Positions 14,955-29,540 of a stretch of DNA of 64,000 bases are shown piece by piece. Origin of the DNA: Deltaproteobacteria bacterium (lineage in GTDB: Bacteria > Myxococcota > Myxococcia > Myxococcales > Anaeromyxobacteraceae); contig JACRMN010000012.1 in the NCBI GenBank assembly GCA_016214955.1, positions 496,001-560,000 of the forward strand, read 5' to 3'. Every line of letters begins with the position of its first letter. The stretch's first letter is position 1. The notes under the pieces were generated by a model, which was not told where the DNA came from, did not search any database, and saw nothing but the letters and a program-made list of their open reading frames with translations. Made by a program: the position numbers and the translations under genes.

Positions 14955-16610
14955 TCAGTGGTTGGTGTGGCAGCCGAAGCAGGTGGAGTAGGAGCCGATG
15001 TTGGCGCCGCCCCACTGGACGGAGGTCTGCCGGAGGTGGCACGCCACGCTGCTGCAGGACTTGGTGGCGGGCGCGTAGCCGGCCCCGTCGAGCCGGAAGG
15101 AGAGCGTGCCGGCAGCGGCGCCGGTCGGTGGCGGCGGGGGATTCCAGGCGGCGCCGGGCGGCAGCACGCTGGCGTCCTTGAAGATGAGCACGCTCACCCA
15201 GTAGGGGAAGTCGGGCGTGAAGGGCGCCGCGGGCAGGCCGTCGAAGCTCGGCGCGGCGGTGCGTCCGTCGAACACCACGTCGCGCGAGCCATTCACGTGG
15301 AGCAGGGGCAGGACTCGCCCGACTCCCTGCGGCGCCCCGCCGGGCGCGCCGGTGTGGCAGCCCGAGGTCCGGCAGCCGTACGTCAGCGCCGCACCTGCCA
15401 GGTCGTACTCGCCGGTGGTGTCGAGCCAGTAGAACCCGGAGCGACCGGTGGCGGTGGGATCGACGGTGGCCGCGTGACAGGTCTGGCAGGTCATGGGCGC
15501 CGCGCCCTCGCCGGGCACGCCGTGCTTGCCGATGACCTCGGTGGTCGCCCCGGCGTAGCGGTTGTGCCAGGTGAAGTGGCCGTAGAGCTGGGGGCTGGAG
15601 CCGGCCATGGGCACGCGCAGGAGCAGGTGGCTGTTGGCGGTGGCGGAGCCGGCCGCGCCGGTCGGGTAGGCGGGCGGGTTGCCGTGGCAGCCGCTGCAGC
15701 CCAGGTGCGTGCCCGACGTCCAGGCCGGCGTGCCCGCGTAGGCCGGGCTCTCCTGGCCGCTGGAGTGGCAGTAGACCCCGCTGCAGGTCCCGCCGGCGGC
15801 GTCGAAGGCGGCGGTGGGGGCGTTGCGGGCCTTGAGGCTTCCGGCCGGCGCGTCCGCCTCGTGGAGCACGACGTCGATCGTGCCGTTCATGTGCCTGCGG
15901 GAGTCGACCGAGTGGCAGCTGGCGCAGCCGAACGCGTAAACCGCCGGCGCGCTGGTGGGCGTCTCGGCCGGGTAGCGGTCCCGCAGCGTGCCGACGTCCG
16001 CATAGCTGGCCGCGGTGATGCCCGGGAGCCCGAAGTGGGCGACGTGTGCCCCCGTGGCCGGCGGGAAGGGATGGCAGGAGGCGCAGCCGCTTCCTCCGGC
16101 GCCCCCGGAGAAGTCCAGCACCCCGTTGACGTGCCTTCCGCCGGCGATGTCGATGGTGCCGTCCGGCTTCACCGTGCCGGAGTGGCAGGCGTTGCAGGAG
16201 GTGGCCGAGGCGGCGTGCGACGTCGGCGGGTAGCCGTGGCACGCGGCGCACTCGACGGAGGGAGCCGGGGGGACGGGCGAGTAGACATAGGCCCAGGCCA
16301 CGGGCGGGGAGCCGGAGCCGTGGCAGTAGACGCCGGAGCAGGTCCGGGAGGCGGGGTCCCAGGAAGGCACCGCCCCTCCGGCCGCCGCCAGCTCGCCGAA
16401 GGCGACGTTCTTGCTGCCGGTCGGGCCGCACACCGGCGCGTGGCACTCCGCGCAGGAGAGCTTGCCGCGCACCCGATGGTCCTGCGTGTGGCTGGCGTGA
16501 GCCGCACCCTGGGAGATCGTCATGTCCGCCGCCAGCGCCCGTCCCGCCGCCAGCCCACAGGCGAGCACCAGCAACGCCGCGCAGCCCCGGTTCCGCATTG
16601 CCGGCTTCAT
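14955..16610 (-). CDS. secreted dodecahaem c-type cytochrome
   Basis: 551 residues with an N-terminal signal peptide (MRNRGCAALLVLACGLAAGRALA region). I count twelve haem-binding motifs: eight CxxCH (CAECH, CAACH, CNACH, CASCH twice, CSGCH, CQTCH, CFGCH) and four CxxxxCH (CSGVYCH twice, CRTSGCH, CSSVACH). The mixed spacing is characteristic of Geobacter/Anaeromyxobacter outer-membrane-associated cytochromes used in metal reduction and extracellular electron transfer. The ATG at 16610 shares its A with the stop of the upstream cytochrome (TGATG), so the two are translationally coupled. An internal ATG at 16598 would also give a good signal peptide. Electron partners are inferred, not seen. Confidence 0.9.
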   Translation of the reverse strand: MKPAMRNRGCAALLVLACGLAAGRALAADMTISQGAAHASHTQDHRVRGKLSCAECHAPVCGPTGSKNVAFGELAAAGGAVPSWDPASRTCSGVYCHGSGSPPVAWAYVYSPVPPAPSVECAACHGYPPTSHAASATSCNACHSGTVKPDGTIDIAGGRHVNGVLDFSGGAGGSGCASCHPFPPATGAHVAHFGLPGITAASYADVGTLRDRYPAETPTSAPAVYAFGCASCHSVDSRRHMNGTIDVVLHEADAPAGSLKARNAPTAAFDAAGGTCSGVYCHSSGQESPAYAGTPAWTSGTHLGCSGCHGNPPAYPTGAAGSATANSHLLLRVPMAGSSPQLYGHFTWHNRYAGATTEVIGKHGVPGEGAAPMTCQTCHAATVDPTATGRSGFYWLDTTGEYDLAGAALTYGCRTSGCHTGAPGGAPQGVGRVLPLLHVNGSRDVVFDGRTAAPSFDGLPAAPFTPDFPYWVSVLIFKDASVLPPGAAWNPPPPPTGAAAGTLSFRLDGAGYAPATKSCSSVACHLRQTSVQWGGANIGSYSTCFGCHTNH

Positions 16611-17521
16611 CAGTGACACCCGAAGCACTTCGAGGTGAACCTGGCCTGCACGTCCGCGATCCCGTTGCCGTGCAGCGCCGCGTACGTCGCGTTGATTGCG
16701 ACGCCGACGGTCGACCCGCCGACGACGGCGCTGATGGCGTCGGGGTGGCAGGTCTCGCACTTCCTTCCGGTTGCCAGGGAGGACGCGTGGATGGGCGAAT
16801 GCCAGGCGGTGGTGGGCGAGGGGGGGTTCCCGTGGCACGACGTGCAGGTCGAGCCAGGCGTGTACCAGTTGCCCGCAGCGCCGCCGGAGCCCGCGTACGG
16901 GACCGTCACGTACTCGACCTCCTCGAGGCCGTAGTCCCAGCGGGTGTACGTGAAGGTGCCGGAGTAGGCCCCGTGGCACGAGACGTTGGAGCAGGTCTTG
17001 GCGGCCGGGTCGAAGGCCGGGGAGGGCTTGCCGGAGGCCGCCGCCGGGCCCGTCGGGTCGAGGCAGGGGCTTCCTCCGACGAGATGGCAGGCAGCGCAGT
17101 CGTAGGCGCGGTGCCTGGCGTGGGCGCCGCTCGGGGAGAACGGCACGGCGAGCGCGGCCTGCACGCTGCGCCCGATGCCCTCGGCGCCCCGGTCCACCAG
17201 CGCGTCCCCGCGGCCGTCGACGCCCTCGTCGCGGGGTACCCACCGCGCGCCGTCGTAGATCCACTCCCGGCCGTCCACGGTGTTGAAGTAGGCCTGCATC
17301 AGCCGAGGAGCCGTGGGCGCCGACGCCAGCCTGGGAAGGCGCCGGGTCGAGACGGACTTGCCGGCGGGAACGGTGGAGCCGGGGGGAGCGGGCGGTCCGT
17401 CCTGGCGGGAGCAGCCGGAGATTCCGAGCAGCCCGATCCCCACCAGCAGCACGGTGGCTGGAGCCCAACCCATGCCGCGCCGGATGCGGCCCTTCGCCAC
17501 AGCGCCCCGCTGCTTGTCCAT
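16610..17521 (-). CDS. pentahaem c-type cytochrome lipoprotein
   Basis: 303 residues. Residues 18-37 form a lipoprotein signal ending in LLGISGC, so the protein is probably anchored to a membrane facing the periplasm or cell surface. Five haem motifs: CAACH, CSNVSCH (CxxxxCH), CTSCH, CETCH and CFGCH. The last motif is the very C-terminus, the gene stopping directly after the His. Its repeat style (FDPAAKTCSNVSCHG, CTSCHGNPP) matches the downstream dodecahaem protein, so the pair may have arisen by splitting or duplication of one gene. First gene of the cytochrome-cytochrome-NHL unit. Confidence 0.9.
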   Translation of the reverse strand: MDKQRGAVAKGRIRRGMGWAPATVLLVGIGLLGISGCSRQDGPPAPPGSTVPAGKSVSTRRLPRLASAPTAPRLMQAYFNTVDGREWIYDGARWVPRDEGVDGRGDALVDRGAEGIGRSVQAALAVPFSPSGAHARHRAYDCAACHLVGGSPCLDPTGPAAASGKPSPAFDPAAKTCSNVSCHGAYSGTFTYTRWDYGLEEVEYVTVPYAGSGGAAGNWYTPGSTCTSCHGNPPSPTTAWHSPIHASSLATGRKCETCHPDAISAVVGGSTVGVAINATYAALHGNGIADVQARFTSKCFGCH

Positions 17522-18004
17522 GAAGCCCCTCCCGAGGGCACGGCAGGTCGCGGCGTGGCGACGATGAGCTGGCCCTGAAGCCGGCGGGGGTAAGCAGGTA
17601 TTGAGCCACCATCACGGTGAGGCAAACCTCGGTGATCCCGAGACGCGCCCTCGACGATGGCCCGGGACCCTGGGGGCTTCACCCATTCCCGTGAGTGAAT
17701 GGGGGAAAAGACCCTCCGAGGCCATGAACCGCGGCCGCGGTGGTGAGCCTGCTCCTCTTCGACCTCGACCGGCTCGCGTCCCGGGAGCCGGGTACACCCG
17801 CACGGCCGCGCGTTGCCTCGGCAGCTCGGCGACGAGGGCCTCGGCGCCGGTTGGGGTGATGCAGCGGATCCGCTTGCACACCCCGGCACCGGTTCCTACC
17901 CACAGCACCTGGCCCGGCCCGGGGAGCCGCCCGCGCCGGCGCCAACACCCCGCCCGCCAGGAGCGGCGAACGACGACGACGCAGGGTCGAAAGGGGTCAC
18001 GCTC
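17522..18004. other. 483-bp gap: cytochrome promoter region, hairpin and possible broken small gene
   Basis: This is the shared upstream region of the cytochrome unit (minus) and the reductase gene (plus). It holds the hairpin described separately. On the minus strand, from a GTG near 17878, one frame reads CKRIRCITPTGAEALVAELP and continues with good codon usage for about 35 codons. It then deteriorates, while the next frame picks up REPVEVEEEQAHHRGRG. Removing one base near 17775 would join them. This may be a frameshifted small gene or chance. No clear -35/-10 pair seen. Confidence 0.35.
17682..17703. other. hairpin in the cytochrome leader region
   Basis: CCCATTC (17682-17688) and GAATGGG (17697-17703) form a perfect seven-base-pair stem with an eight-base loop, about 160 bases upstream of the pentahaem cytochrome start. 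It could be a leader structure, operator or attenuator. It lacks the GACGCAAAGCC core of a c-di-GMP (GEMM) riboswitch, so I do not call one. Confidence 0.3.
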
Positions 18005-18670
18005 ATGTCGAGGCTTCGGGTCAACGCGTTCAGCATCTCGATCGACGGCTACGGCGCCGGTCCCGACCAGGCTCTGGAGAATCCCATGGGCGTTGGAGGG
18101 ATGGCGCTGCACCAGTGGGTGCTCGGCACGAAGACGTTCCAGAAGGTGGCCGGCGGCTTCGCCGGGTCGCTGATCGGGGACAAGGTCGCCCGGCAGGACA
18201 TCGACGACCACTTCGCCGCGCGGAGCTTCGACAACCTCGGTGCCTGGATCATGGGCCGCAACATGTTCGCGCCGTCGCGCGGTCCCTGGCCCGACGACGG
18301 ATGGAAGGGATGGTGGGGCAACGTCCCGCCCTACCACGTGCCCGTCTTCGTGCTCACCCACCATGCCCGGGCACCGCTCACGATGGAGGGCGGAACCACG
18401 TTCCACTTCGTGACCGATGGCATCCATGCCGCGCTGGAGCGCGCGAAGGAGGCGGCTCGAGGCAAGGACGTCCGGCTCGGCGGGGGCACTGCCACCATCC
18501 GCCAGTACCTCGCCGCCGGCCTCATCGACGAGATCCACCTCGCGATCTCCCCCGTCCTCCTCGGCCGGGGCGAGCACCTCCTCGCCGGGATCGACACGGT
18601 GGGGCTCGGCTACAGGTGCACGGAGGACGCGTCCACGAGCCAGGCCACCCACGTGGTGCTGGCGAGGTAG
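18005..18670 (+). CDS. dihydrofolate reductase / RibD C-terminal family protein
   Basis: 221 residues. The start VNAFSISIDGYGAGP and the C-terminal LGGGTATIRQYLAAGLIDEIHLAISPVLLG pattern (split here as GGGTATIRQYL and IDEIHLAISPVLLG) are typical of the RibD-C/YwjB-type reductases. These bind NAD(P)H and reduce pterin- or pyrimidine-like substrates. The central insertion MGRNMF with GPWPDDGWKGWWG is usual for this subgroup. The physiological substrate is unknown. ATG at 18005 has AAGGGG nine bases upstream. It is the last chromosomal gene before the tRNA-Asp island. Confidence 0.85.
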   Translation: MSRLRVNAFSISIDGYGAGPDQALENPMGVGGMALHQWVLGTKTFQKVAGGFAGSLIGDKVARQDIDDHFAARSFDNLGAWIMGRNMFAPSRGPWPDDGWKGWWGNVPPYHVPVFVLTHHARAPLTMEGGTTFHFVTDGIHAALERAKEAARGKDVRLGGGTATIRQYLAAGLIDEIHLAISPVLLGRGEHLLAGIDTVGLGYRCTEDASTSQATHVVLAR

Positions 18671-18803: not shown

Positions 18804-18844
18804 GAGGCCGGGACCCCTGCGTTTCCGCTGGGAGTCCCGGCCTC
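18804..18844 (-). terminator. left (chromosomal) copy of the tRNA-Asp terminator hairpin
   Basis: GAGGCCGGGAC (18804-18814) pairs with GTCCCGGCCTC (18834-18844). It is a diverged copy of the hairpin that follows the intact tRNA-Asp at 29418-29458, with a different loop and without the T-tract. It lies just left of the duplicated tRNA core, so it is most likely the original terminator separated from its tRNA by island integration. Confidence 0.55.
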
Positions 18845-18894
18845 TGTACTGGCGGGGTGTAGGGGACTCGAACCCCTGGCCTCCGGCGTGACAG
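18833..18894. repeat. attL: 62-bp copy of the tRNA-Asp 3' half
   Basis: These 62 bases are identical to 29447-29508. They run from the terminator arm through the tRNA 3' end, acceptor and T arms into the anticodon loop (ending GTGACAG), where the two copies diverge. The tRNA 5' half is missing here. This is the signature of a tyrosine-integrase attachment site with crossover near the anticodon loop. The spacing between copies is 10,614 bp. Confidence 0.9.
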
Positions 18895-19356: not shown

Positions 19357-20295
19357 ATGGATCCGACGCCGATCCGGCACGAGTGGAAGAGTCGGGCAGA
19401 GCCTGGCGGGCTCCACCTGTTCGACCGCGTCACCGGACTGAACGTGTTGCTCGACGAAATCCGCGTCGCGCCGCAACACTGGTCAACCGCGCCTAGGCAG
19501 GTGTCAGTTGCCCTTACGAACGCTTGCGACCTCTCGTGCTCGTTCTGCTTCGCGCCCAAGCGCCGAGCGGAGCTTCCGTTTGAAACGCTGATACAGTGGC
19601 TGGTGGAGCTCGACGAAGACGGATGCCTCGGCGTCGGCTTCGGAGGTGGCGAGCCGACGAAGTACCCGCGCTTCGTCGATCTGTGTCGACTCACCGCACG
19701 TCGAACGCAGCTTGCTGTTACGTTTACGACGCACGGGCACTCCTTCGACCGTTCGCTTGCGGCGAAACTGAAGGGAAGCGTTCACTTCATCCGCGTTAGC
19801 ATGGACGGAGTGGGGACGACGTACGAGGCGCTCCGGGGCCGACCGTTCTCTGAGTTCTTGGTGCGGCTGGACGTGATCAAGAGCGTTGCGCCGTTCGGCA
19901 TCAACTTCTTAGTCAACGCGCAGACGATTCCGTGCCTGGACACGGCGGCAAGAATCGCCGGCGACTTTGGTGCGGCCGAGTTCCTCCTGCTCCCTGAGCG
20001 CGAAGCCGGCTCGGCGCGGTCGGGCGACACGGCCACCGCCCTGCAACTTCGGAGCTGGGTGGAGCGGTATCGTGGCTCGGTACCCCTTTCCGTAAGCGAG
20101 ACGGACAGTGATGGGTTGCCGACCTGCTCCCCGTTCCGGCCTGATGACGACAGGTTGGGAGCCTACGCGCACGTCGATGCGCAGGGCGTCCTCAAGCCAA
20201 CGTCTTTCGACGAGAAGGGAATTGCGATCGGTGAAGGCGGGATTCGACGCGCCCTGCGAGTGCTCAGGGACAACGAAAGGCAAGGACCGACATGA
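19357..20295 (+). CDS. radical SAM enzyme of the island cassette
   Basis: 312 residues from ATG 19357 (an upstream GTG/ATG extension looks non-coding). C57, C61 and C64 in ACDLSCSFC form the CxxxCxxC site for the [4Fe-4S] cluster that cleaves S-adenosylmethionine. GGGEP at 96-100 binds the SAM amino group. The rest follows the TIM-barrel pattern (TFTTHG, IRVSMDG, INFLVNAQT). There is no multi-Cys SPASM domain; only one late Cys (CSPF) is seen, in a region that looks like a degenerate version of one. The substrate is unknown: a small molecule, a nucleotide or the neighbouring 138-residue protein are all possible. It is not clearly a viperin. Its stop overlaps the next start (ATGA). Confidence 0.85.
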   Translation: MDPTPIRHEWKSRAEPGGLHLFDRVTGLNVLLDEIRVAPQHWSTAPRQVSVALTNACDLSCSFCFAPKRRAELPFETLIQWLVELDEDGCLGVGFGGGEPTKYPRFVDLCRLTARRTQLAVTFTTHGHSFDRSLAAKLKGSVHFIRVSMDGVGTTYEALRGRPFSEFLVRLDVIKSVAPFGINFLVNAQTIPCLDTAARIAGDFGAAEFLLLPEREAGSARSGDTATALQLRSWVERYRGSVPLSVSETDSDGLPTCSPFRPDDDRLGAYAHVDAQGVLKPTSFDEKGIAIGEGGIRRALRVLRDNERQGPT

Positions 20296-20708
20296 AGATC
20301 TGGCAGGCGTATGGGTCGGAGCACTCCGCGAACTTGGTGATGATAGGTCGGTTCAAGACGGAGGATGACGCTGCGAAGGCGAAGCACATCATCGAGATGA
20401 TCTCGGAGGGCGTCCAAGCTGACGTCGACGCCGGACGAATCAAGCTCGGTGAGCCGCCTGAGCGGTACACGGATGAAGCACAGCGGCAGCTTCGGCAGGT
20501 GAAGGTTCACAGCCTCGCGCCGGGCGAGCTAGAGCAATTCGTCTACGATATCTCCGTCGAATTAAAGGGAACCGAAATCGTCATCACAACCGATGAGATC
20601 GACGTATCAGCTTTCATGAAAGTGCTGTTCGACGGTGGCGCTCGGATTGAGGTCTATTCGGCGCACGAATATCCGCGTCCGGGCGAGGTCGAGCCCGGCG
20701 ATCGGTGA
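20292..20708 (+). CDS. 138-residue protein of unknown function, middle gene of the cassette
   Basis: The start overlaps the radical SAM stop (ATGA) and the stop lies four bases before the STAND gene, so the three are almost certainly one translationally coupled operon. The N-terminus MKIWQAYGSEHSANLVMIGRF is followed by alternating helix and strand segments (AAKAKHIIEMISEGV, TEIVITTDEIDVS, ARIEVYSAHEYP), suggesting a compact alpha/beta, ferredoxin-like fold. No Cys, no catalytic motif and no signal peptide are visible. It could be a substrate of the radical SAM enzyme, an adaptor that gates the STAND protein, or an immunity-like partner. I assign no family name. Confidence 0.8.
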   Translation: MKIWQAYGSEHSANLVMIGRFKTEDDAAKAKHIIEMISEGVQADVDAGRIKLGEPPERYTDEAQRQLRQVKVHSLAPGELEQFVYDISVELKGTEIVITTDEIDVSAFMKVLFDGGARIEVYSAHEYPRPGEVEPGDR

Positions 20709-20712
20709 CGCC

Positions 20713-23700
20713 ATGCCGCAGGTTAATTGGGATGCGTTCGCGGCACTCTCCGGCGCTGCGACGTCGAACTTCGAGTTGCTGTGCCGAGCGCTCATCCGGA
20801 GGCACTACGGTCGCTTCGGGCGCTTTGCGGCGCTCGCGTCGCAGCCCGGAGTGGAGTTCCACCTCCGGATAGACCGGGCCTGTACGCTTGGTGATCCGGG
20901 CCGGTGGTTCGGATGGCAGTGTCGCTGGTACGACCTCGCGGCCGGCAAGGCTCTCGGCAAGACGCGTCGCGACAAGATCGCCAAGGCGTTGAAGACGACG
21001 GAACGCGAGCTTCCTGGCCTAACCGACTGGGTTCTGTGGACGCGGCGGCCGCTCACCGAGGGTGACCAGAAGTGGTTTTTTGGGCTGGAGTCTCCGTTCA
21101 AGCTCCATCTCTGGACGGCGTCGGAGGTCGAGGAACACCTCAGTGGGGACGCCGAGATCCTGAGGGCGACGTACTTCGGCGAGCTGGTGTTTTCGCCGGA
21201 AGACCTCAAGGCGCTGCACGGCTCGGCAGCGGCTACCGTCCGCCCGAGGTGGCTGCCGGAGGTGCACCAGTCAGTAGAAGCCGAACGTGAGCTCCGGCGG
21301 TTCTTGGGAGAGGTGGCAAGCTGGGGAGATCTCCGTGAGACTGAGAAGAGTCTGTTGACGCACGCGAGCACCGTCGAAGGCGCAGCAGGCGTTGCTCCAT
21401 CGGTCCTGCGACCAGAGATCGCGCGCATGCCTGGGGCGCTGCGTGGTTGCGCCAGTGCTCTTGCGACCGCTGCATCAGCGCTCGACACCGGGGACTTCGA
21501 TCTGCTCCGGCAGGTGACGCAGTCACGACCTGCCGTCATCAGTGGGGAGTTCGTGGGCCTCCCCCGCCAACTGCGGGCCGCACGATCCGCGGCCGTATTC
21601 GCAGTCACGGACGCGCTAGCGACGCTCAAGGCAGCAGCTGTGCTTCTGGACGAAGTTGGCCAGGCGGTTGGGGTTCGCTCCGTCGCGGTTGTCGCAGACG
21701 CAGGAGGTGGAAAGACGCAGCTTAGCGCACAGCTTACTGCGTCGGTGGAGGGCCGCCCGGCAGGGGTGCTGCTGTTCGGGCGAGACCTCCATTCCCGAGA
21801 CAATCTCACAGATCTGGTGCGCCGCTCGATCTCGATCCGCGGCACCCCGGTACCCAGCATCGAAGCGCTCGTGGCCGCGATCGATGCAGCGGGCCAGCGG
21901 GCGCACCGGCGGCTCCCGCTTGTCATCGATGGCCTCAATGAGGCTGAAGACGCGCGGGACTGGAAGGCCCCGCTCGCGGCGCTGAACGAGCTACTCGAAA
22001 GCTACCCTTACGTCGTCGCGGTCTGCACGGTGCGTGGTGCTTTCGCGGAAGAGGCGTTGCCTTCCGCCATAGTCCGCCTGGAGATGACCGGATTCGATGA
22101 AGACCTGCGAGACGCGGCCGTTCGGTACTTCACGTATTTCAGGATCGACTGGCGCGATGCTGAACTGCCGTTCGAACTCCTGCGTCACCCGCTGACACTG
22201 CGCTTGTTCTGCGAGGTCACGAACCCCAGAAGAGACAAGCCGGTCAGTATCGACAAAGGCCCAGGTTCGCTGGCGGCCCTGTTCGACCGATACCTTGAGA
22301 TCGCCGCGGGACAGATTGCGAGCCTTGCCCCTGCGTCGCACAGATACTACGACCACGACGCCCGAAACGCTGTCGACGAGATTGGAAAAGAACTCTGGCG
22401 ACGACGTGGGCGTTCCATACCGAGAAGTGCTTTGCGCGTGATGCTCGGGGAACAGGGTCGCTCCTGGCAAGAGAGTATCGTTCGCGCGCTCGAACACGAA
22501 GGCGTGCTCCTTGCGGTACCGGGTGATGCGCCAGGGGATCCCCACGAAGCGGTCGTGTATGACGCACTCGCGGGACACATGATCGCAAGCCACGTCATCG
22601 GAGCACGAGGGAGCGACCACCTCGAGGAATGGCTGAATGCGAGCGAAGTGGTAACGGCCCTTTCGGCTCCGCATGACGGGCGGCACCCGCTGGCCGCGGA
22701 CATCGTCACCAGCCTTGTAGCATTGGTGCCACGGCGCGGCGGGCATAAGCAGGCATGGCAAATCGCTCCAGCTCCACTGCGACTCACCGCGCTACGACAG
22801 GCCGCAGAGTTGGAAGGCGCCTACCTAGACGCCGCTACGGTTCGGGAACTCGCAGATCTCATCACGACGCATCGAGATGGGGTGCCAGACATACTCGATC
22901 GGCTGGTCCGTACGCGTGGGCTGATAGGTCACCCACTCAATGCTGAGTTCCTCGACGGCGCACTCCGCGCGATGCCGGTGGCCCAGCGGGACCTCCGGTG
23001 GACGGAGTGGCTTCGCAGAAACGCAGACGCCATCCAGAAGGGACTGGAGTCGCTGGAGTCGTACTGGCGGAGAAGGGATCAGAGGGGGCCCGCGGACGTT
23101 CTGCGTGCAAAGTGGGTGATGTGGACTCTCACGAGCACCGTTCGGCGCCTGCGTGATCAGGCGACGAGAACATTGTACTGGTTCGGCCGTGCCGACCTCG
23201 GCGCGCTCCTGACGCTCGTCGCTGACGCGCTCTCGATCGATGACGCCTACGTTCCAGAGCGTGCTGCTGCTGCCGGGTACGGAGTAGTCATGGCACAGCA
23301 ACCGTCCGCTGAGGCGTCCGAGCCGGTCCTGGCCCGATTCCTGGCGAGAATCGGCGACGAACTTGTCGGAGCGGCGTCCGCGCATCCCACGAGTCACTAC
23401 CTGATCCGCCTATTTGTGGACGGCATCTTCTCGTTTGCAACGAAGTTCTGTCCGAATGCTATCCCGCAGGCTTGGCGTGGGCGGGATGGCGTGCCGTTTG
23501 TGCGCGGGCCTGTCGTCGAGGCCATCCCAGACAATGACGTTCGAGCAAAGGAGGTTGATCGGACTCTCGGGATGGACTTCTCAAACTACACGATCGGTGG
23601 TCTCATCGAAGGCCGCGGCAACTACCAGATGGAACACGCCGGCTACCGCGCGGCCCTCGCACACGTGCGTGGGGTCGTGTGGAGTATCGGTTGGCGAAAG

Positions 23701-24792
23701 GCGTTGTTCGACGAGATCGACAACGAACTCGGCGGGCAAGTACACAGGGGTGTTCGAGCCGACATCGAACGTTACGGGAAGAAGTATGGGTGGAGCGGCT
23801 ACTATACGTTGGCGGGAGAACTTGATGAGGAGGGCCGCCTTCCCGACCGGGAGGAACGCCTAGCGGATGTTGATATCGATCCGTCGTTTCCCGAGGATCC
23901 TCCACCGGATGTAGTGAAGATCGAAGGCTTGACTGCCCAATTCCCCGGGGATGACAAACGCTGGCTCGTCGAAGGGGAGGTCCGCGTTCCAGATGAACTG
24001 CTCTATCGAGATTCGATCCGGGGCAGGCCCGGTCCTTGGGTCGCGGTATATGCATTCCTGAACAGTCGCGAGGAGCTGGAGCGGAGGCGGGTGTTCGCGT
24101 TTGTCTCGGGGCTGTTTGTCGCTAAGCGAGATGTCCCTCGAGTTGTGAAGGCGCTTAGGGAACGGGAGTACCCAGGCAATCACTGGCTCCCGGAACCACG
24201 AACGGCGTACTACTCGTTCGCCGGCGAGATCCCCTGGCACCCCGACTTCGTGCGTCACTGGGGCGAAGTCGCGGACTACACGCACGAACTCGAACTCGGG
24301 AACGCGGCTTCGGTCAAGATCGAGGCACTCGCTCACGAGTACGGATGGGAGACGTACCATAGCCAGTTGAACAGGGCTGGTGGCGCGATGGTGCCGTCAG
24401 CTTGGTTCTCGCGACAGTTCGACCTCCGCCCGGTGCCGAACGGTTTTGACCAGATGCTGCCGGACGGTTCTTTCGCGGCCATTTCGCTACGTGCGCCCGA
24501 AGCGTTCTCCGGTCATATCGTGTATCTGCGCGAAGATCTTCTTGAGCGGTACGCGAACGGGCGTCGACTCGTCTGGTTCGCTTGGGGGGAAAGAGAGATC
24601 AGGCGGCGCAACTATGCTGACCCGCCCTCGTGGGTGATGGAGGCGATCCAGAAACATCAGAACGTATGGCGGTGGATCCGGCTACGCAATGACCTTTCAT
24701 CGCGCGGCGCCACATCTGCACGCGCTCGGCCTTCTCGCTCGCGGAGAGGGCAAACGCGACGGCCCCGTTCGAAGAAGAATCCGGGAAAGTAG
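20713..24792 (+). CDS. STAND-type NTPase with N-terminal restriction-nuclease-like domain
   Basis: 1359 residues. Residues 15-130 look like a PD-(D/E)XK (Mrr/restriction) fold: E48 in PGVEFHL, then WQCRWYD with Q69-C70-R71, where families usually have QxK. The NTPase core has a P-loop ADAGGGKT (328-335) and Walker B VIDGLNEA (404-411). The DG-x-NE arrangement is typical of NACHT/STAND ATPases. A winged-helix and helical region follows (about 490-900). The last roughly 400 residues are a mixed alpha/beta region, probably the sensor, ending in a basic tail. The layout nuclease-STAND-sensor is that of Avs-like anti-phage proteins, which oligomerise when they bind a phage protein. Here no TPR repeats are obvious. 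ATG 20713 gives a start just before the nuclease domain. Confidence 0.85.
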   Translation: MPQVNWDAFAALSGAATSNFELLCRALIRRHYGRFGRFAALASQPGVEFHLRIDRACTLGDPGRWFGWQCRWYDLAAGKALGKTRRDKIAKALKTTERELPGLTDWVLWTRRPLTEGDQKWFFGLESPFKLHLWTASEVEEHLSGDAEILRATYFGELVFSPEDLKALHGSAAATVRPRWLPEVHQSVEAERELRRFLGEVASWGDLRETEKSLLTHASTVEGAAGVAPSVLRPEIARMPGALRGCASALATAASALDTGDFDLLRQVTQSRPAVISGEFVGLPRQLRAARSAAVFAVTDALATLKAAAVLLDEVGQAVGVRSVAVVADAGGGKTQLSAQLTASVEGRPAGVLLFGRDLHSRDNLTDLVRRSISIRGTPVPSIEALVAAIDAAGQRAHRRLPLVIDGLNEAEDARDWKAPLAALNELLESYPYVVAVCTVRGAFAEEALPSAIVRLEMTGFDEDLRDAAVRYFTYFRIDWRDAELPFELLRHPLTLRLFCEVTNPRRDKPVSIDKGPGSLAALFDRYLEIAAGQIASLAPASHRYYDHDARNAVDEIGKELWRRRGRSIPRSALRVMLGEQGRSWQESIVRALEHEGVLLAVPGDAPGDPHEAVVYDALAGHMIASHVIGARGSDHLEEWLNASEVVTALSAPHDGRHPLAADIVTSLVALVPRRGGHKQAWQIAPAPLRLTALRQAAELEGAYLDAATVRELADLITTHRDGVPDILDRLVRTRGLIGHPLNAEFLDGALRAMPVAQRDLRWTEWLRRNADAIQKGLESLESYWRRRDQRGPADVLRAKWVMWTLTSTVRRLRDQATRTLYWFGRADLGALLTLVADALSIDDAYVPERAAAAGYGVVMAQQPSAEASEPVLARFLARIGDELVGAASAHPTSHYLIRLFVDGIFSFATKFCPNAIPQAWRGRDGVPFVRGPVVEAIPDNDVRAKEVDRTLGMDFSNYTIGGLIEGRGNYQMEHAGYRAALAHVRGVVWSIGWRKALFDEIDNELGGQVHRGVRADIERYGKKYGWSGYYTLAGELDEEGRLPDREERLADVDIDPSFPEDPPPDVVKIEGLTAQFPGDDKRWLVEGEVRVPDELLYRDSIRGRPGPWVAVYAFLNSREELERRRVFAFVSGLFVAKRDVPRVVKALREREYPGNHWLPEPRTAYYSFAGEIPWHPDFVRHWGEVADYTHELELGNAASVKIEALAHEYGWETYHSQLNRAGGAMVPSAWFSRQFDLRPVPNGFDQMLPDGSFAAISLRAPEAFSGHIVYLREDLLERYANGRRLVWFAWGEREIRRRNYADPPSWVMEAIQKHQNVWRWIRLRNDLSSRGATSARARPSRSRRGQTRRPRSKKNPGK

Positions 24793-26307: not shown

Positions 26308-27927
26308 ATGGGCGGCGACGATCACCGTTGCGAGTGGCGCGAGAGGGCCGAGGCCCTCGAGACGCGCCTCGCCCAGCTCGAATCCTCCCTGGCCAAGCTG
26401 CAGCGCCACACCTTCGGCAAGCGCTCCGAGAAGATGCCGCCGGTGAGCGAGGAGCTGCGCCGGGCCGGCGTGACGTCCTCGGACCCCGAGGCGGCGCTGG
26501 CGAAGCGCCGGGCCAACGCCGAGAAGAAGAAGGGGCTCCCGGCCCGGGAGATCGTCCACAAGGTCCCCGAGGAGAAGAAGCACTGCCCAAGGTGCGGCGG
26601 CCACGACTTCACCTCGCTCGGCGCCGGCAAGGTGACCACGGTCTACGACTACATCCCCGCTCGCTTCGAGCAGCAGATCCACATCCAGGAGAAGCTCCGC
26701 TGCAAGTGCGGCGAGACCATCCTCACCGCCGAGAAGCCGGCCGGCGCGTACGACAAGGCCGGGTACGGCTCGGGCGTCCTCGCTCACCTGGCGGTGGCGA
26801 AGTGTGCCGACGCCATCCCCATCTACCGGCTCGCCAAGCAGTACCGGCGCAGCGGCGTGCCGGTGAGCCGCTCATCGCTCAACGACCTCTTCCACCGGAC
26901 CGCGGAGGAGACCGCTCCGCTCGCGCAGCGGCTCCTGGCCCTCACGGCGCAGCAGCTCGTCGTCCAGGCCGACGAGACGACGGTGCGCGTGCTGGCCGAG
27001 GGGAAGACGAGAACGGCCTGGCTCTGGACCTTCCTCGCCCAGGCCGAGGACAAGCACCTCATCGCCTACTGCTACAGCCCCAGCCGCTCGGGCGAGACGC
27101 CGGTGAGCGTGCTCGGCGGGACCAAGGGCTTCCTCGTCTCCGATGGCTACACCGGCTACAACAAGGTGACGACGCCGGAGGGCCGTGAGCGCGTCGGTTG
27201 CATCGCCCACCTTCGCCGGCGCTTCTTCGACGCGCTCCCGAGCGCTCCGCAGGCCCGGCAGGCTCTCGATCTCATCCTCGAGCTGTACAAGGTCGAGCGG
27301 GCCGCGGCCGAGCTGAACGTCTTCGGCACGCCCCAGCACCTGGCGCTCCGCCGCGAGAAGAGCCGCCAGGCCATGGACGACCTCCACGCCTGGCTCGTGG
27401 CCGAGCAGCCGAAGCACCTGCCCAAGGGCCCCCTCGGCGAGGCCATCGGCTACGCCCTCAACCAGTGGAAGCCGCTCACCCGTTTCCTCGACGACGCCCG
27501 ACTCCCCGTCGACAACAACGCGTCGGAGAGAGCGCTCCGCCCGGCTGCGCTCGGGCGCAAGAACTACCTCTTCGTCGGAAACGACCACGCCGGCCAGAAC
27601 ATCGCCGGCCTCTATGCCCTCATCGCCACCTGCGAAGTGAACGGGGTCAATCCCTTCGAGTACCTCGCCGACGTCCTCCTGACCTGCCCCCCGGAAACTA
27701 GTCCAGTCGAGCTGCAACCTCTACGCTGCAAGTGGGGGTCGCATGAAGCCGAAGACGTACTCCGAGGAGCAGATCATCGGCGCGCTGCAGGAGGCCGACA
27801 ACGGCGCGCCGGTCCAGGACGTGTGCCGGCGGCTTGGCATCAGCAAGGTCACCTTCTATCGCTGGAAGGCCAAGTTCTCGGGCATGCAGGTGAGCGACGC
27901 GAAGCGCCTGCGGCAGCTCGAGGATGA
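26308..27927 (+). pseudogene. tnpC: IS66 transposase TnpC, C-terminus replaced by IS3 sequence
   Basis: Starts at ATG 26308. The N-terminal leucine-zipper-like helix (LETRLAQLESSLAKLQ) and RHTFGKRSEK are followed by a CPRCGG ... CKCG zinc-finger region. The DDE catalytic domain comes next (VQADETTVRVL; VSDGYTGYN; LPVDNNASERALR). The sequence matches the family up to NPFEYLADVLL at 27679, then runs 83 codons into IS3 DNA in a meaningless frame. Probably 25-35 natural C-terminal residues are gone. The three catalytic acidic segments are intact, but with the right inverted repeat missing the element cannot move on its own. Confidence 0.85.
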
Positions 27928-28578
27928 GAACCGCCGGCTCAAAGCAGATGGTGGCGGACCAGGCCCTCGACATCCAGGCGCTGAAGGCGGTCACCCGGCG
28001 AAAGTGGTGAAGCCCACGGTCCTGCGGCAGGCCGTGGGCTACCTCCAGAGCGAGTTCCAGATGAGCGAGCGGCGAGCCTGCCGGCTGCTCGACTTCTGTC
28101 GGGCGAGCGCCCGCTACAGGTCGCTGCGCGAGGAGCCCGCTGGCCTGGTCGGCAGGCTCCGCGAGCTGGCCTCCCAGCGGCCGCGCTGGGGCTACCGCCG
28201 GCTCCACGTCCTGCTTCGACGTGAGGGCGTGGAGGTGAACCACAAGCGCGTGTACCGCCTCTATCGCGCCGAAGGGCTCGCCGTGCGTCGCAAGCTGCGC
28301 AAGCGCCTCGCGTCGGGGTTGCGGACCGTCCTGCCGCCGCCGACGGCACCGAACGAGCGGTGGTCGATGGACTTCGTCTCCGACGCACTCATCGGCGGGA
28401 CCAGGATCCGCGCCTTCGTGGTCGTGGACGACTTCACCCGCGAGTGCCTGGCCATCGAGGTCGACACCTCGATCCCCGGCCTCCGCGCCACGCGCGTGCT
28501 GGAGAGGGTCGCCGAGAGCCGGCCGTTGCCGAAGTACCTCATCTGCGACAACGGCCCCGAGTTCAGCGGCAGGGTCTT
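27680..28578 (+). mobile_element. IS3-family insertion sequence, 3' part deleted
   Basis: The left end starts TGACCTGCCCCCCGG at 27680, matching the TGACCTGCCCC ends seen in the IS407/IS2-like branch of IS3. It is inserted in the 3' end of the IS66 tnpC. The element stops abruptly at about 28578 inside the transposase catalytic domain, where integrase sequence begins, so its right end and any target duplication are lost. Confidence 0.8.
27743..28578 (+). pseudogene. IS3-family transposase OrfA+OrfB, frameshifted and truncated
   Basis: OrfA starts MKPKTYSEEQIIGALQ with an HTH (VCRRLGISKVTFYRW) and a heptad helix (LRQLEDENRRLK). One extra base within CTCAAAGCAG (about 27942) shifts the rest of OrfA out of frame and places it in the OrfB frame. 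OrfA and OrfB therefore read as one ORF with a nonsense linker. OrfB continues KPTVLRQAVGYLQ, the HTH region RWGYRRLHVLLRREG and the first two catalytic acidic positions (WSMDFVSD; CDNGPEF). It breaks off before the final Glu. Inactive. Confidence 0.85.
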
Positions 28579-29375
28579 CGAAGCTCGCGCCGGAGCAGCG
28601 GCCGGTGTTCGCGGCGGCCATCTTCACGGGGTTCCGCAAGGGCGAGCTGTGCGGGCTCCGGAAGGACGACGTGGACCTGGTGCGCCGGCTCCTGGTCGCG
28701 CGGCGCTCCTACGAGCGGCCATTCCCGAAGAGCAAGAAGCAGCGGGTGGTGGCGATCCCGGAGGAGTTCGTTCCGTTCATCACGTACGCGCTCCGGGCGA
28801 CGAAGGGGCCGTGGCTCTTCCCCGACGAGACCGGCGCGATGCGGAACAAGACCTGGCAGCCGGAGGACGTGCTGCGGCGCGCGCTCAAGCGGGCGGGGAT
28901 CGTCACCGGGTACACGCACGTGTGCCGCCGGAAGACGTGCCGCTTCAGCGAGGAGCGGGAGGACGCGGAGATCCGGCCGTGCCCGCGCTGTGGGTTCAAG
29001 CTCTGGCCGAAGGGGAAGGTCCGGGAGATCCGCTTCCACGACCTCCGGCACACCTACGCGAGCGTGCTCCTCATGCTCGGCGCGCGGCTCGTCTCCGTGC
29101 AGAAGCTGCTCGGCCACTCGGATCCGAAGATCACCGAACGGCGGTACGGCCACCTGCTCCCGGACTTCATGAAGTCGGAGGTGGACCGGCTGCGGTTCGG
29201 GATCGACCAGCTCGCGCCGACCGCAGGGGCGCCCCTCGACTCCGCCGCGCTTCGCGCGGCTACGCTCGGGGCGAGCGGGGCGAGCGGGGATGGGGGGAGC
29301 TCGCGGTTCGACAGGCTCACCGCGAGCGGGAGAACAGGCAGCGATTCGCCAGACTTCGCGGCCGCTGGGAGCAGC

Positions 29376-29396
29376 CTTGGTATCCCCTTGGTATCC
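29376..29396. repeat. tandem CTTGGTATCC repeat, right island end
   Basis: Exact copy, same orientation, of the left-end tandem repeat at 19011-19031. It lies inside the 3' extension of the integrase frame, 51 bases before the attR core. Likely integrase arm-type or excisionase sites. Confidence 0.6.
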
Positions 29397-29417
29397 GCCC
29401 CCGCCGCCCAAAAAGCT

Positions 29418-29446
29418 GAGGCCGGGACTCCACCGGTTTCCCGTGA

Positions 29447-29458
<12 letters not shown>
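29418..29458 (-). terminator. Rho-independent terminator of the tRNA-Val/tRNA-Asp operon
   Basis: Reading the minus strand, a perfect 12-bp stem (GAGGCCGGGACT with AGTCCCGGCCTC, 17-base loop) is followed by AGC and five T residues (complement of 29410-29414). It lies six bases beyond the tRNA-Asp CCA. Because it is inside the island boundary it was probably brought by the element to restore termination. Confidence 0.85.

Positions 29459-29540
<82 letters not shown>

What the first reader, a model, noticed from the sequence alone, without database searches (positions are those of the whole stretch)
19357..24792. Three-gene radical SAM / small protein / STAND-nuclease cassette: candidate undescribed defence system
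Seen: the three genes are coupled (ATGA overlap, then a four-base gap), have lower GC than the flanks, and sit in a tRNA-integrated island. The third gene has a nuclease-like N-terminus, a P-loop ADAGGGKT and VIDGLNEA Walker B. Known: STAND proteins with nuclease effectors (Avs type) defend against phage by sensing a phage protein. Inference: the radical SAM enzyme and the 138-residue protein form a modification or gating arm of such a system. I know of no described defence system with exactly this trio, though I cannot search.
Basis: partly seen in the sequence, partly recalled or inferred. Interest (0 to 1): 0.9.

Follow-up and report, generated by a model that had tools for sequence, protein, structure and literature searches.

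The report
Radical-enzyme-coupled phage-alarm nuclease operon
Three neighbouring genes, a radical-chemistry enzyme, a small protein of unknown function and a large phage-alarm-type nuclease, travel together as one unit across at least 18 bacterial phyla, and probably form an anti-phage defence system in which the alarm protein depends on an enzyme modification not previously linked to this kind of system.

Summary
Genes: radical SAM (rSAM) enzyme 19357-20295, DUF6375 protein 20292-20708, STAND nuclease 20713-24792. A scan with DUF6375 alone found 64 loci in 84,980 genomes: 63 have this rSAM gene just upstream, 61 have this STAND gene just downstream. From the STAND side, all 13 full-length relatives in 1,363 genomes carry the pair; more distant Avs2-like proteins do not. 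The three proteins co-evolve (r = 0.80-0.89), and the STANDs form one clade beside Avs2 (SH-aLRT 100). The STAND is an Avs2 relative, but scores 192 bits against an Avs2 cut-off of 1000, where true Avs2 proteins score 1424-1675. Its N-terminus folds like the Avs4 and MspJI nucleases. Three relatives sit inside type I restriction gene clusters. The window copy is cargo of a decayed tRNA-Asp element. No held paper mentions DUF6375; the key AVAST papers were not readable. Most likely mechanism: phage-triggered suicide nuclease gated by rSAM-modified DUF6375. Defence is likely; the gating step is inferred. Verdict: new variant of a known kind.

The parts
19357..20295 (+). Radical SAM enzyme, 312 aa, single CxxxCxxC cluster motif, no conserved auxiliary-cluster cysteines
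   Evidence: Pfam Radical_SAM 50.6 bits over a cut-off of 29.5; C57, C61, C64 in 67-68 of 68 relatives
19525..19548 (+). CDLSCSFC, the [4Fe-4S]/SAM site of the rSAM enzyme
20292..20708 (+). DUF6375 protein, 138 aa, overlaps the rSAM stop codon (ATGA)
   Evidence: PF19902, 150 bits over a cut-off of 27.5; ferredoxin-like alpha/beta model, mean pLDDT 85.8, no PDB homologue
20292..20354 (+). Conserved N-terminal tail MKIWxxYGSEHSxNLVMIGxF of DUF6375; W4, G8, E10, H11, S12, G19, F21 invariant in 67 sequences; residues 1-10 have no confident structure
20713..24792 (+). STAND NTPase, 1359 aa, relative of Avs2: N-terminal nuclease, NACHT-like ATPase, long C-terminal sensor-like region
   Evidence: PADLOC Avs2 287 bits; NCBIfam Avs2 192 bits, cut-off 1000; solved Avs2 9o4e E = 9e-18
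20713..21192 (+). N-terminal Mrr-like PD-(D/E)XK nuclease domain: E21, E48, Q69, R71 (K in 47 of 64 relatives, R in 17)
   Evidence: Foldseek best hits Avs4 8dgf and MspJI 4f0p; conservation
21694..21717 (+). Walker A, ADAGGGKT
   Evidence: G331, G333, K334, T335 conserved
21922..21945 (+). Walker B, VIDGLNEA
   Evidence: D406-E410 conserved
18804..18894 (.). Left direct repeat (attL-like), copy of the tRNA-Asp 3' end
29418..29508 (.). Right direct repeat (attR-like), overlaps the 3' end of the tRNA-Asp gene
29464..29540 (-). tRNA-Asp(gtc), the integration target
   Evidence: Rfam tRNA 72.8 bits
19065..19217 (+). HTH_17 domain, possible excisionase of the element
   Evidence: Pfam 42 bits
28605..29534 (+). 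C-terminal remnant of a tyrosine integrase
   Evidence: Pfam Phage_integrase 70 bits
25522..28600 (+). IS66-like and IS3-like insertion sequences between trio and integrase
   Evidence: ORFs; transposase domains in 27743-29416

Best explanation
The three genes form one anti-phage system of the STAND/AVAST kind with a built-in modification arm. The large protein is a sister of Avs2: its C-terminal region senses a phage protein, ATP-dependent oligomerisation through the NACHT-like domain follows, and the N-terminal Mrr-type nuclease is switched on to cut DNA and stop the infected cell. The rSAM enzyme and DUF6375 are obligate partners of this nuclease. Most likely the rSAM enzyme installs a radical-derived modification on the conserved, disordered N-terminal tail of DUF6375, and modified DUF6375 binds the STAND protein and licenses or restrains it. 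Shown here: the linkage, co-evolution, single origin, intact rSAM and STAND motifs, nuclease-like fold, and mobile and defence contexts. Inferred: the defence function, the phage trigger, and above all that DUF6375 is the substrate and acts as a gate.
For: Obligate trio: DUF6375 scan, 63/64 with rSAM and 61/64 with STAND in 18 named phyla; STAND-side search, 13/13 full-length relatives have the pair; plasmids, the same 15-16 records from three separate queries. Co-evolution r = 0.80, 0.86, 0.89 against permuted maxima of 0.15. One clade of 64 STANDs against 12 Avs2-like proteins without the pair, SH-aLRT 100. Avs2 homology across ATPase and C-terminal regions. Nuclease fold: Avs4 E = 4e-5, MspJI E = 9e-3. 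The nuclease domain is as conserved as the ATPase (0.46-0.55 mean pairwise identity, C-terminus 0.23-0.32). rSAM motif kept in 67-68 of 68. DUF6375 residues 1-20 have 0.76 mean identity against 0.25-0.53 elsewhere, yet residues 1-10 have pLDDT 48, as expected of a tail that is read by a partner. Trio placed within type I restriction gene clusters in L044, L046 and L055 and beside GmrSD in L062. Precedents: rSAM plus peptide effectors in conflict systems (PMC7159879); a gated nuclease pair in Avs1 (PMC12799240).
Against: No phage or enzyme data. DUF6375 is a folded 138-residue protein, not a typical short peptide substrate, and its fold matches nothing solved. The expected nuclease lysine is arginine in this copy and in 17 of 64 sequences in all, so catalysis is not certain. 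rSAM and DUF6375 are sometimes left without the STAND gene (L063, L066, L005), where they may have another role or be decaying.
Confidence: 0.55

Rival explanations
1. Same defence trio, but the rSAM enzyme modifies the STAND protein itself (sensor or nuclease) and DUF6375 is its chaperone or substrate-delivery partner, as MftB and PqqD serve peptide maturases.
For: rSAM core closest to peptide and cofactor maturases (MftC, SkfB, PqqE); all three genes needed together; strongest co-evolution is rSAM with STAND, r = 0.89.
Against: DUF6375 models as ferredoxin-like, not as the winged-helix recognition element of those partners (fold of the partners from memory); its most conserved part is an unstructured tail.
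Confidence: 0.2
2. The rSAM enzyme makes a small antiviral or signalling molecule (viperin-like) and the STAND nuclease is a separate second line in the same operon.
For: pVip models hit the rSAM core (52 bits, E = 2e-14) and hit all six members scanned.
Against: Viperin family score 40.8 against a cut-off of 180; the match covers only residues 49-165, the general rSAM core; the rSAM is never found without DUF6375; the tight co-evolution is unexplained.
Confidence: 0.1
3. rSAM plus DUF6375 act as an antidote: they keep a constitutively dangerous STAND nuclease off, and phage infection that blocks the modification releases it.
For: STAND is never found without the pair in this clade, while the pair survives loss of STAND (L005, L063, L066, and Vibrio plasmid copies with an IS in the STAND gene).
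Against: The same asymmetry is expected if the pair is merely required for activity; Avs relatives are triggered directly by phage proteins (PMC12931631).
Confidence: 0.15
4. Not defence: a housekeeping or signalling STAND regulator carried by chance on mobile elements.
For: No experimental evidence of defence for this clade.
Against: Rare and patchy (64 hits in 84,980 genomes, 1 of 195 Myxococcota), on plasmids and a tRNA element, within restriction gene clusters, Avs2 kinship and nuclease effector.
Confidence: 0.07

Closest known systems
AVAST type 2 (Avs2)
   Same: STAND ATPase with N-terminal PD-(D/E)XK-type nuclease (GxE...GWQxK/R) and homologous C-terminal region, including the ER-GKKY-W motif; solved Avs2 9o4e matches at E = 9e-18
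   Different: Scores 192-246 bits against a cut-off of 1000; separate clade; needs two further genes that Avs2 loci lack
AVAST type 4 (Avs4)
   Same: N-terminal nuclease fold is the best structural match (8dgf, E = 4e-5)
   Different: ATPase and sensor regions are nearer to Avs2
AVAST type 1 (Avs1)
   Same: Multi-gene STAND system with a separate gated effector pair (PMC12799240)
   Different: That pair is an MBL-fold nuclease and a trypsin-like protease; here it is an rSAM enzyme and DUF6375
Prokaryotic viperins (pVip)
   Same: Radical SAM core, defence context
   Different: Far below the family cut-off (40.8 against 180); always tied to DUF6375 and STAND
rSAM-linked MoxR-vWA conflict systems (Kaur 2020, PMC7159879)
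   Same: NTPase-centred conflict system with an rSAM enzyme thought to modify a protein or peptide encoded next door
   Different: Core there is MoxR/vWA with short peptides; here an Avs2-like STAND and a 138-aa folded protein

Membership tests
AVAST type 2 (Avs2) | NCBIfam NF041813 score above 1000 bits | tested here: not met
   192 bits for the window protein, 203-246 for four relatives; true Avs2 1424 and 1675
AVAST type 2 (Avs2) | STAND/NACHT ATPase with Walker A and B | tested here: met
AVAST type 2 (Avs2) | N-terminal PD-(D/E)XK-type nuclease | tested here: met
   fold and motif; the lysine is arginine in this copy
AVAST type 2 (Avs2) | Single-gene system | tested here: not met
   rSAM and DUF6375 always linked
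AVAST type 2 (Avs2) | Activation by a phage protein (terminase, Ksap1 or similar) | not testable with these tools
   needs phage or co-expression assays
STAND/NLR-like anti-phage proteins (broad kind) | Effector, NACHT-type ATPase and sensor in tandem | tested here: met
Prokaryotic viperin | NCBIfam NF038283 score above 180 bits | tested here: not met
   40.8 bits
Prokaryotic viperin | ddhNTP synthesis | not testable with these tools
   needs biochemistry
rSAM/SPASM peptide maturase | CxxxCxxC radical SAM core | tested here: met
rSAM/SPASM peptide maturase | SPASM/twitch auxiliary cluster cysteines | tested here: not met
   no SPASM hit in six members; outside the CxxxCxxC motif only C110 is conserved, within the core
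rSAM/SPASM peptide maturase | Adjacent substrate gene | tested here: inconclusive
   DUF6375 is adjacent and has a conserved tail, but no modification can be tested
DUF6375 (PF19902) | Pfam score above 27.5 bits | tested here: met
   150 bits

The most novel reading that the evidence does not exclude
A bacterial NLR-like immune receptor whose activity depends on a dedicated radical SAM modification of a partner protein (DUF6375): a post-translationally licensed STAND nuclease, which would be the first case known to me of radical chemistry gating an NLR-type immune protein, conserved across at least 18 phyla.
Probability: 0.4. Interest if true: 0.88.

Novelty: new variant of a known kind. Interest (0 to 1): 0.74.

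Why it matters
STAND/NLR-like defence proteins are generally thought of as self-sufficient sensors. An entire clade that never occurs without an rSAM enzyme and a conserved partner implies that the receptor, or its nuclease, must be chemically licensed or restrained. That would add radical post-translational modification to the control of innate immune receptors, give the unknown family DUF6375 a function, and provide a compact three-gene operon in which the question can be tested directly by deleting one gene at a time. Because the trio is found on conjugative Vibrio plasmids and in many phyla, it may be an unannotated reason for phage resistance.

Tried and rejected
Phage and viral origin: no match in phage records or viral contigs. 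Fourth conserved gene: clustering of 550 neighbouring ORFs gave no family shared by more than 4 loci. Viperin membership: rejected on score. SPASM domain: not found. Known fold for DUF6375: none convincing, best E = 0.018 with poor superposition. Empty integration site in relatives: the joined-flank search did not settle it, because the right-hand repeat matches on its own and the left-hand neighbour gene is itself variable. First structure submissions failed because plasmid rows are not accepted. Consensus promoter and terminator scans gave nothing above shuffles. Papers: no hit for DUF6375, one incidental hit for AVAST with radical SAM; three primary Avs papers are not held. Defence-gene enrichment of neighbours was not put against a control, so only single clear cases are cited.

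Full report
WHAT IS THERE. The three open reading frames are as described: rSAM 19357-20295, DUF6375 20292-20708 (ATGA overlap), STAND 20713-24792 (four-base gap). Pfam finds Radical_SAM (50.6 bits) and DUF6375/PF19902 (150 bits, cut-off 27.5), and a weak NACHT match in the large protein. PADLOC matches the large protein to Avs2 (287 bits) and NCBIfam gives Avs2 at 192 bits, far below its cut-off of 1000. GC is 0.63 against 0.75 in the flanks.

SETTING. A 91-bp direct repeat at 18804-18894 and 29418-29508 carries the 3' end of tRNA-Asp (29464-29540, minus strand). Inside the left end is an HTH_17 domain, next to the right end the C-terminal remnant of a tyrosine integrase; IS66-like and IS3-like sequences lie between the trio and the integrase. 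The trio is thus cargo of a small, now decayed, tRNA-Asp element. Among 195 Myxococcota genomes only this one has DUF6375.

LINKAGE, TESTED FROM THREE SIDES. (a) With DUF6375 as the only query, 64 loci were found in 84,980 species genomes. 63 have the rSAM gene immediately upstream and 61 the STAND gene immediately downstream. Of the exceptions, L066 has a transposase downstream, L063 has the pair but no STAND, and L052 is a lone DUF6375 gene behind a PglZ gene. The rSAM-DUF6375 overlap is exactly four bases in 53 of 67 loci, and the loci cover 18 named phyla, all bacterial. (b) With STAND as query over 1,363 genomes of four groups, all 13 genomes with a full-length relative have both partners next to it; seven genomes have only distant Avs2-like proteins, and none of those shows the pair, though for one (G095) the upstream side is cut by a contig end. 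(c) On plasmids, the rSAM, DUF6375 and STAND queries each return the same 15-16 records as their strong hits, 12 of them Vibrio plasmids; weaker STAND hits are Avs2-type proteins, and five that were fetched have no pair.

CO-EVOLUTION AND ORIGIN. Pairwise-distance matrices of 59 complete sets correlate at 0.80 (rSAM-DUF), 0.89 (rSAM-STAND) and 0.86 (DUF-STAND); permuted maxima are 0.14-0.15. In trees of the ATPase region the trio STANDs are one side of a branch against Avs2-like proteins without the pair (60 against 5; 64 against 12; SH-aLRT 100). One acquisition with no later loss from intact STANDs is the simplest reading. The trees are quick ones with some long branches.

THE STAND PROTEIN. 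It matches solved Avs2 (9o4e) over the ATPase and helical regions, E = 9e-18, with weak further matches in the C-terminal region. An AlphaFold model of residues 1-320 (pLDDT 89) best matches Avs4 (8dgf, E = 4e-5) and the MspJI restriction enzyme (4f0p, E = 9e-3). E21 and E48 are invariant in 64 of 64, Q69 in 63; position 71 is K in 47 and R in 17, R in the window. The same GxE...GWQxK pattern is seen in four of the five Avs2-type plasmid proteins fetched. Mean pairwise identity is 0.46-0.55 in the nuclease, 0.45-0.57 in the ATPase core and 0.23-0.32 in the C-terminal part, as expected of a fixed effector and ATPase with a varying sensor. That the effector is never exchanged in this clade suggests that the pair works with this nuclease (inference). 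Avs1-4 are described as nucleases triggered by terminase, portal or Ksap1 (PMC12931631).

THE rSAM AND DUF6375. The cluster cysteines and the GGE-type motif are kept in nearly all 68 relatives; no auxiliary-cluster cysteines are conserved and no SPASM domain is found. Nearest named families are peptide and cofactor maturases and viperins, all far below cut-off. DUF6375 models as a ferredoxin-like alpha/beta protein (pLDDT 86) without a solved relative. Its first 20 residues are its most conserved part (0.76 against 0.25-0.53), but the first 10 have no confident structure (pLDDT 48). A strongly conserved yet flexible tail is what one expects of a segment that enters an enzyme site or docks on a partner; this is the basis for proposing DUF6375 as the rSAM substrate. 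It is inference.

DEFENCE CONTEXT. In L044 and L046 the trio lies between the methylase/specificity genes and hsdR of a type I restriction system, nearly touching them, and in L055 it follows an hsdM-hsdS gene; L062 has a GmrSD restriction gene upstream. No fourth gene is shared. No phage or viral contig carries the trio.

RELATION TO THE KNOWN. It works like AVAST (STAND sensor with nuclease effector). It is not a member of Avs2 by the curated cut-off, nor a single-gene system. A three-gene AVAST-like system with rSAM plus DUF6375 was not found in the papers available, but the primary AVAST papers are not held, and the PADLOC copy is from 2023. Nearest precedents are rSAM enzymes with peptide effectors in MoxR-vWA systems (PMC7159879) and a protease-gated nuclease in Avs1 (PMC12799240).

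VERDICT. Observation confirmed. Interpretation supported as a defence candidate; mechanism of the pair inferred. New variant of a known kind.

Noticed in passing
window 17813-18670; L076:477-1154: A RibD/dihydrofolate-reductase-like gene lies just outside the left repeat; a 94% identical copy sits beside the same tRNA-Asp, next to a different integrase, in a genome of another genus (G033). The tRNA-Asp site looks like a hotspot with tandem elements.
   Followed up: partly
L006 (NZ_CP115190.1) and 11 further Vibrio plasmid records: The trio is carried on large, mostly conjugative Vibrio plasmids, in L006 near qnrVC6 and dfrA31; in two records an IS3 element interrupts the STAND gene.
   Followed up: no
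L052:8001-8561: A DUF6375 gene without rSAM or STAND, overlapping the end of a PglZ-domain gene (BREX-type context); its C-terminus diverges. May be a recombinant or an assembly join.
   Followed up: partly
L063:7066-8396: rSAM plus DUF6375 without any STAND gene, in a candidate-phylum genome, on an island with an integrase.
   Followed up: partly
L103:4699-8580 (minus): A STAND protein without rSAM or DUF6375 and with a short N-terminus is the nearest sister of the trio clade; it may show the state before the pair was acquired.
   Followed up: partly
window 14955-17521 (minus strand): Two open frames with many CxxCH motifs, apparently multi-haem cytochrome-like proteins, left of the element.
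   Followed up: no
STAND residue 71 (window 20923-20925): The expected nuclease lysine is arginine in this copy (17 of 64 sequences in all), and no third residue occurs.
   Followed up: partly
L045:3019-7080 and L049:9394-11754: Large genes (1354 and 787 aa) beside the trio with no Pfam match; possible further unknown defence genes.
   Followed up: no
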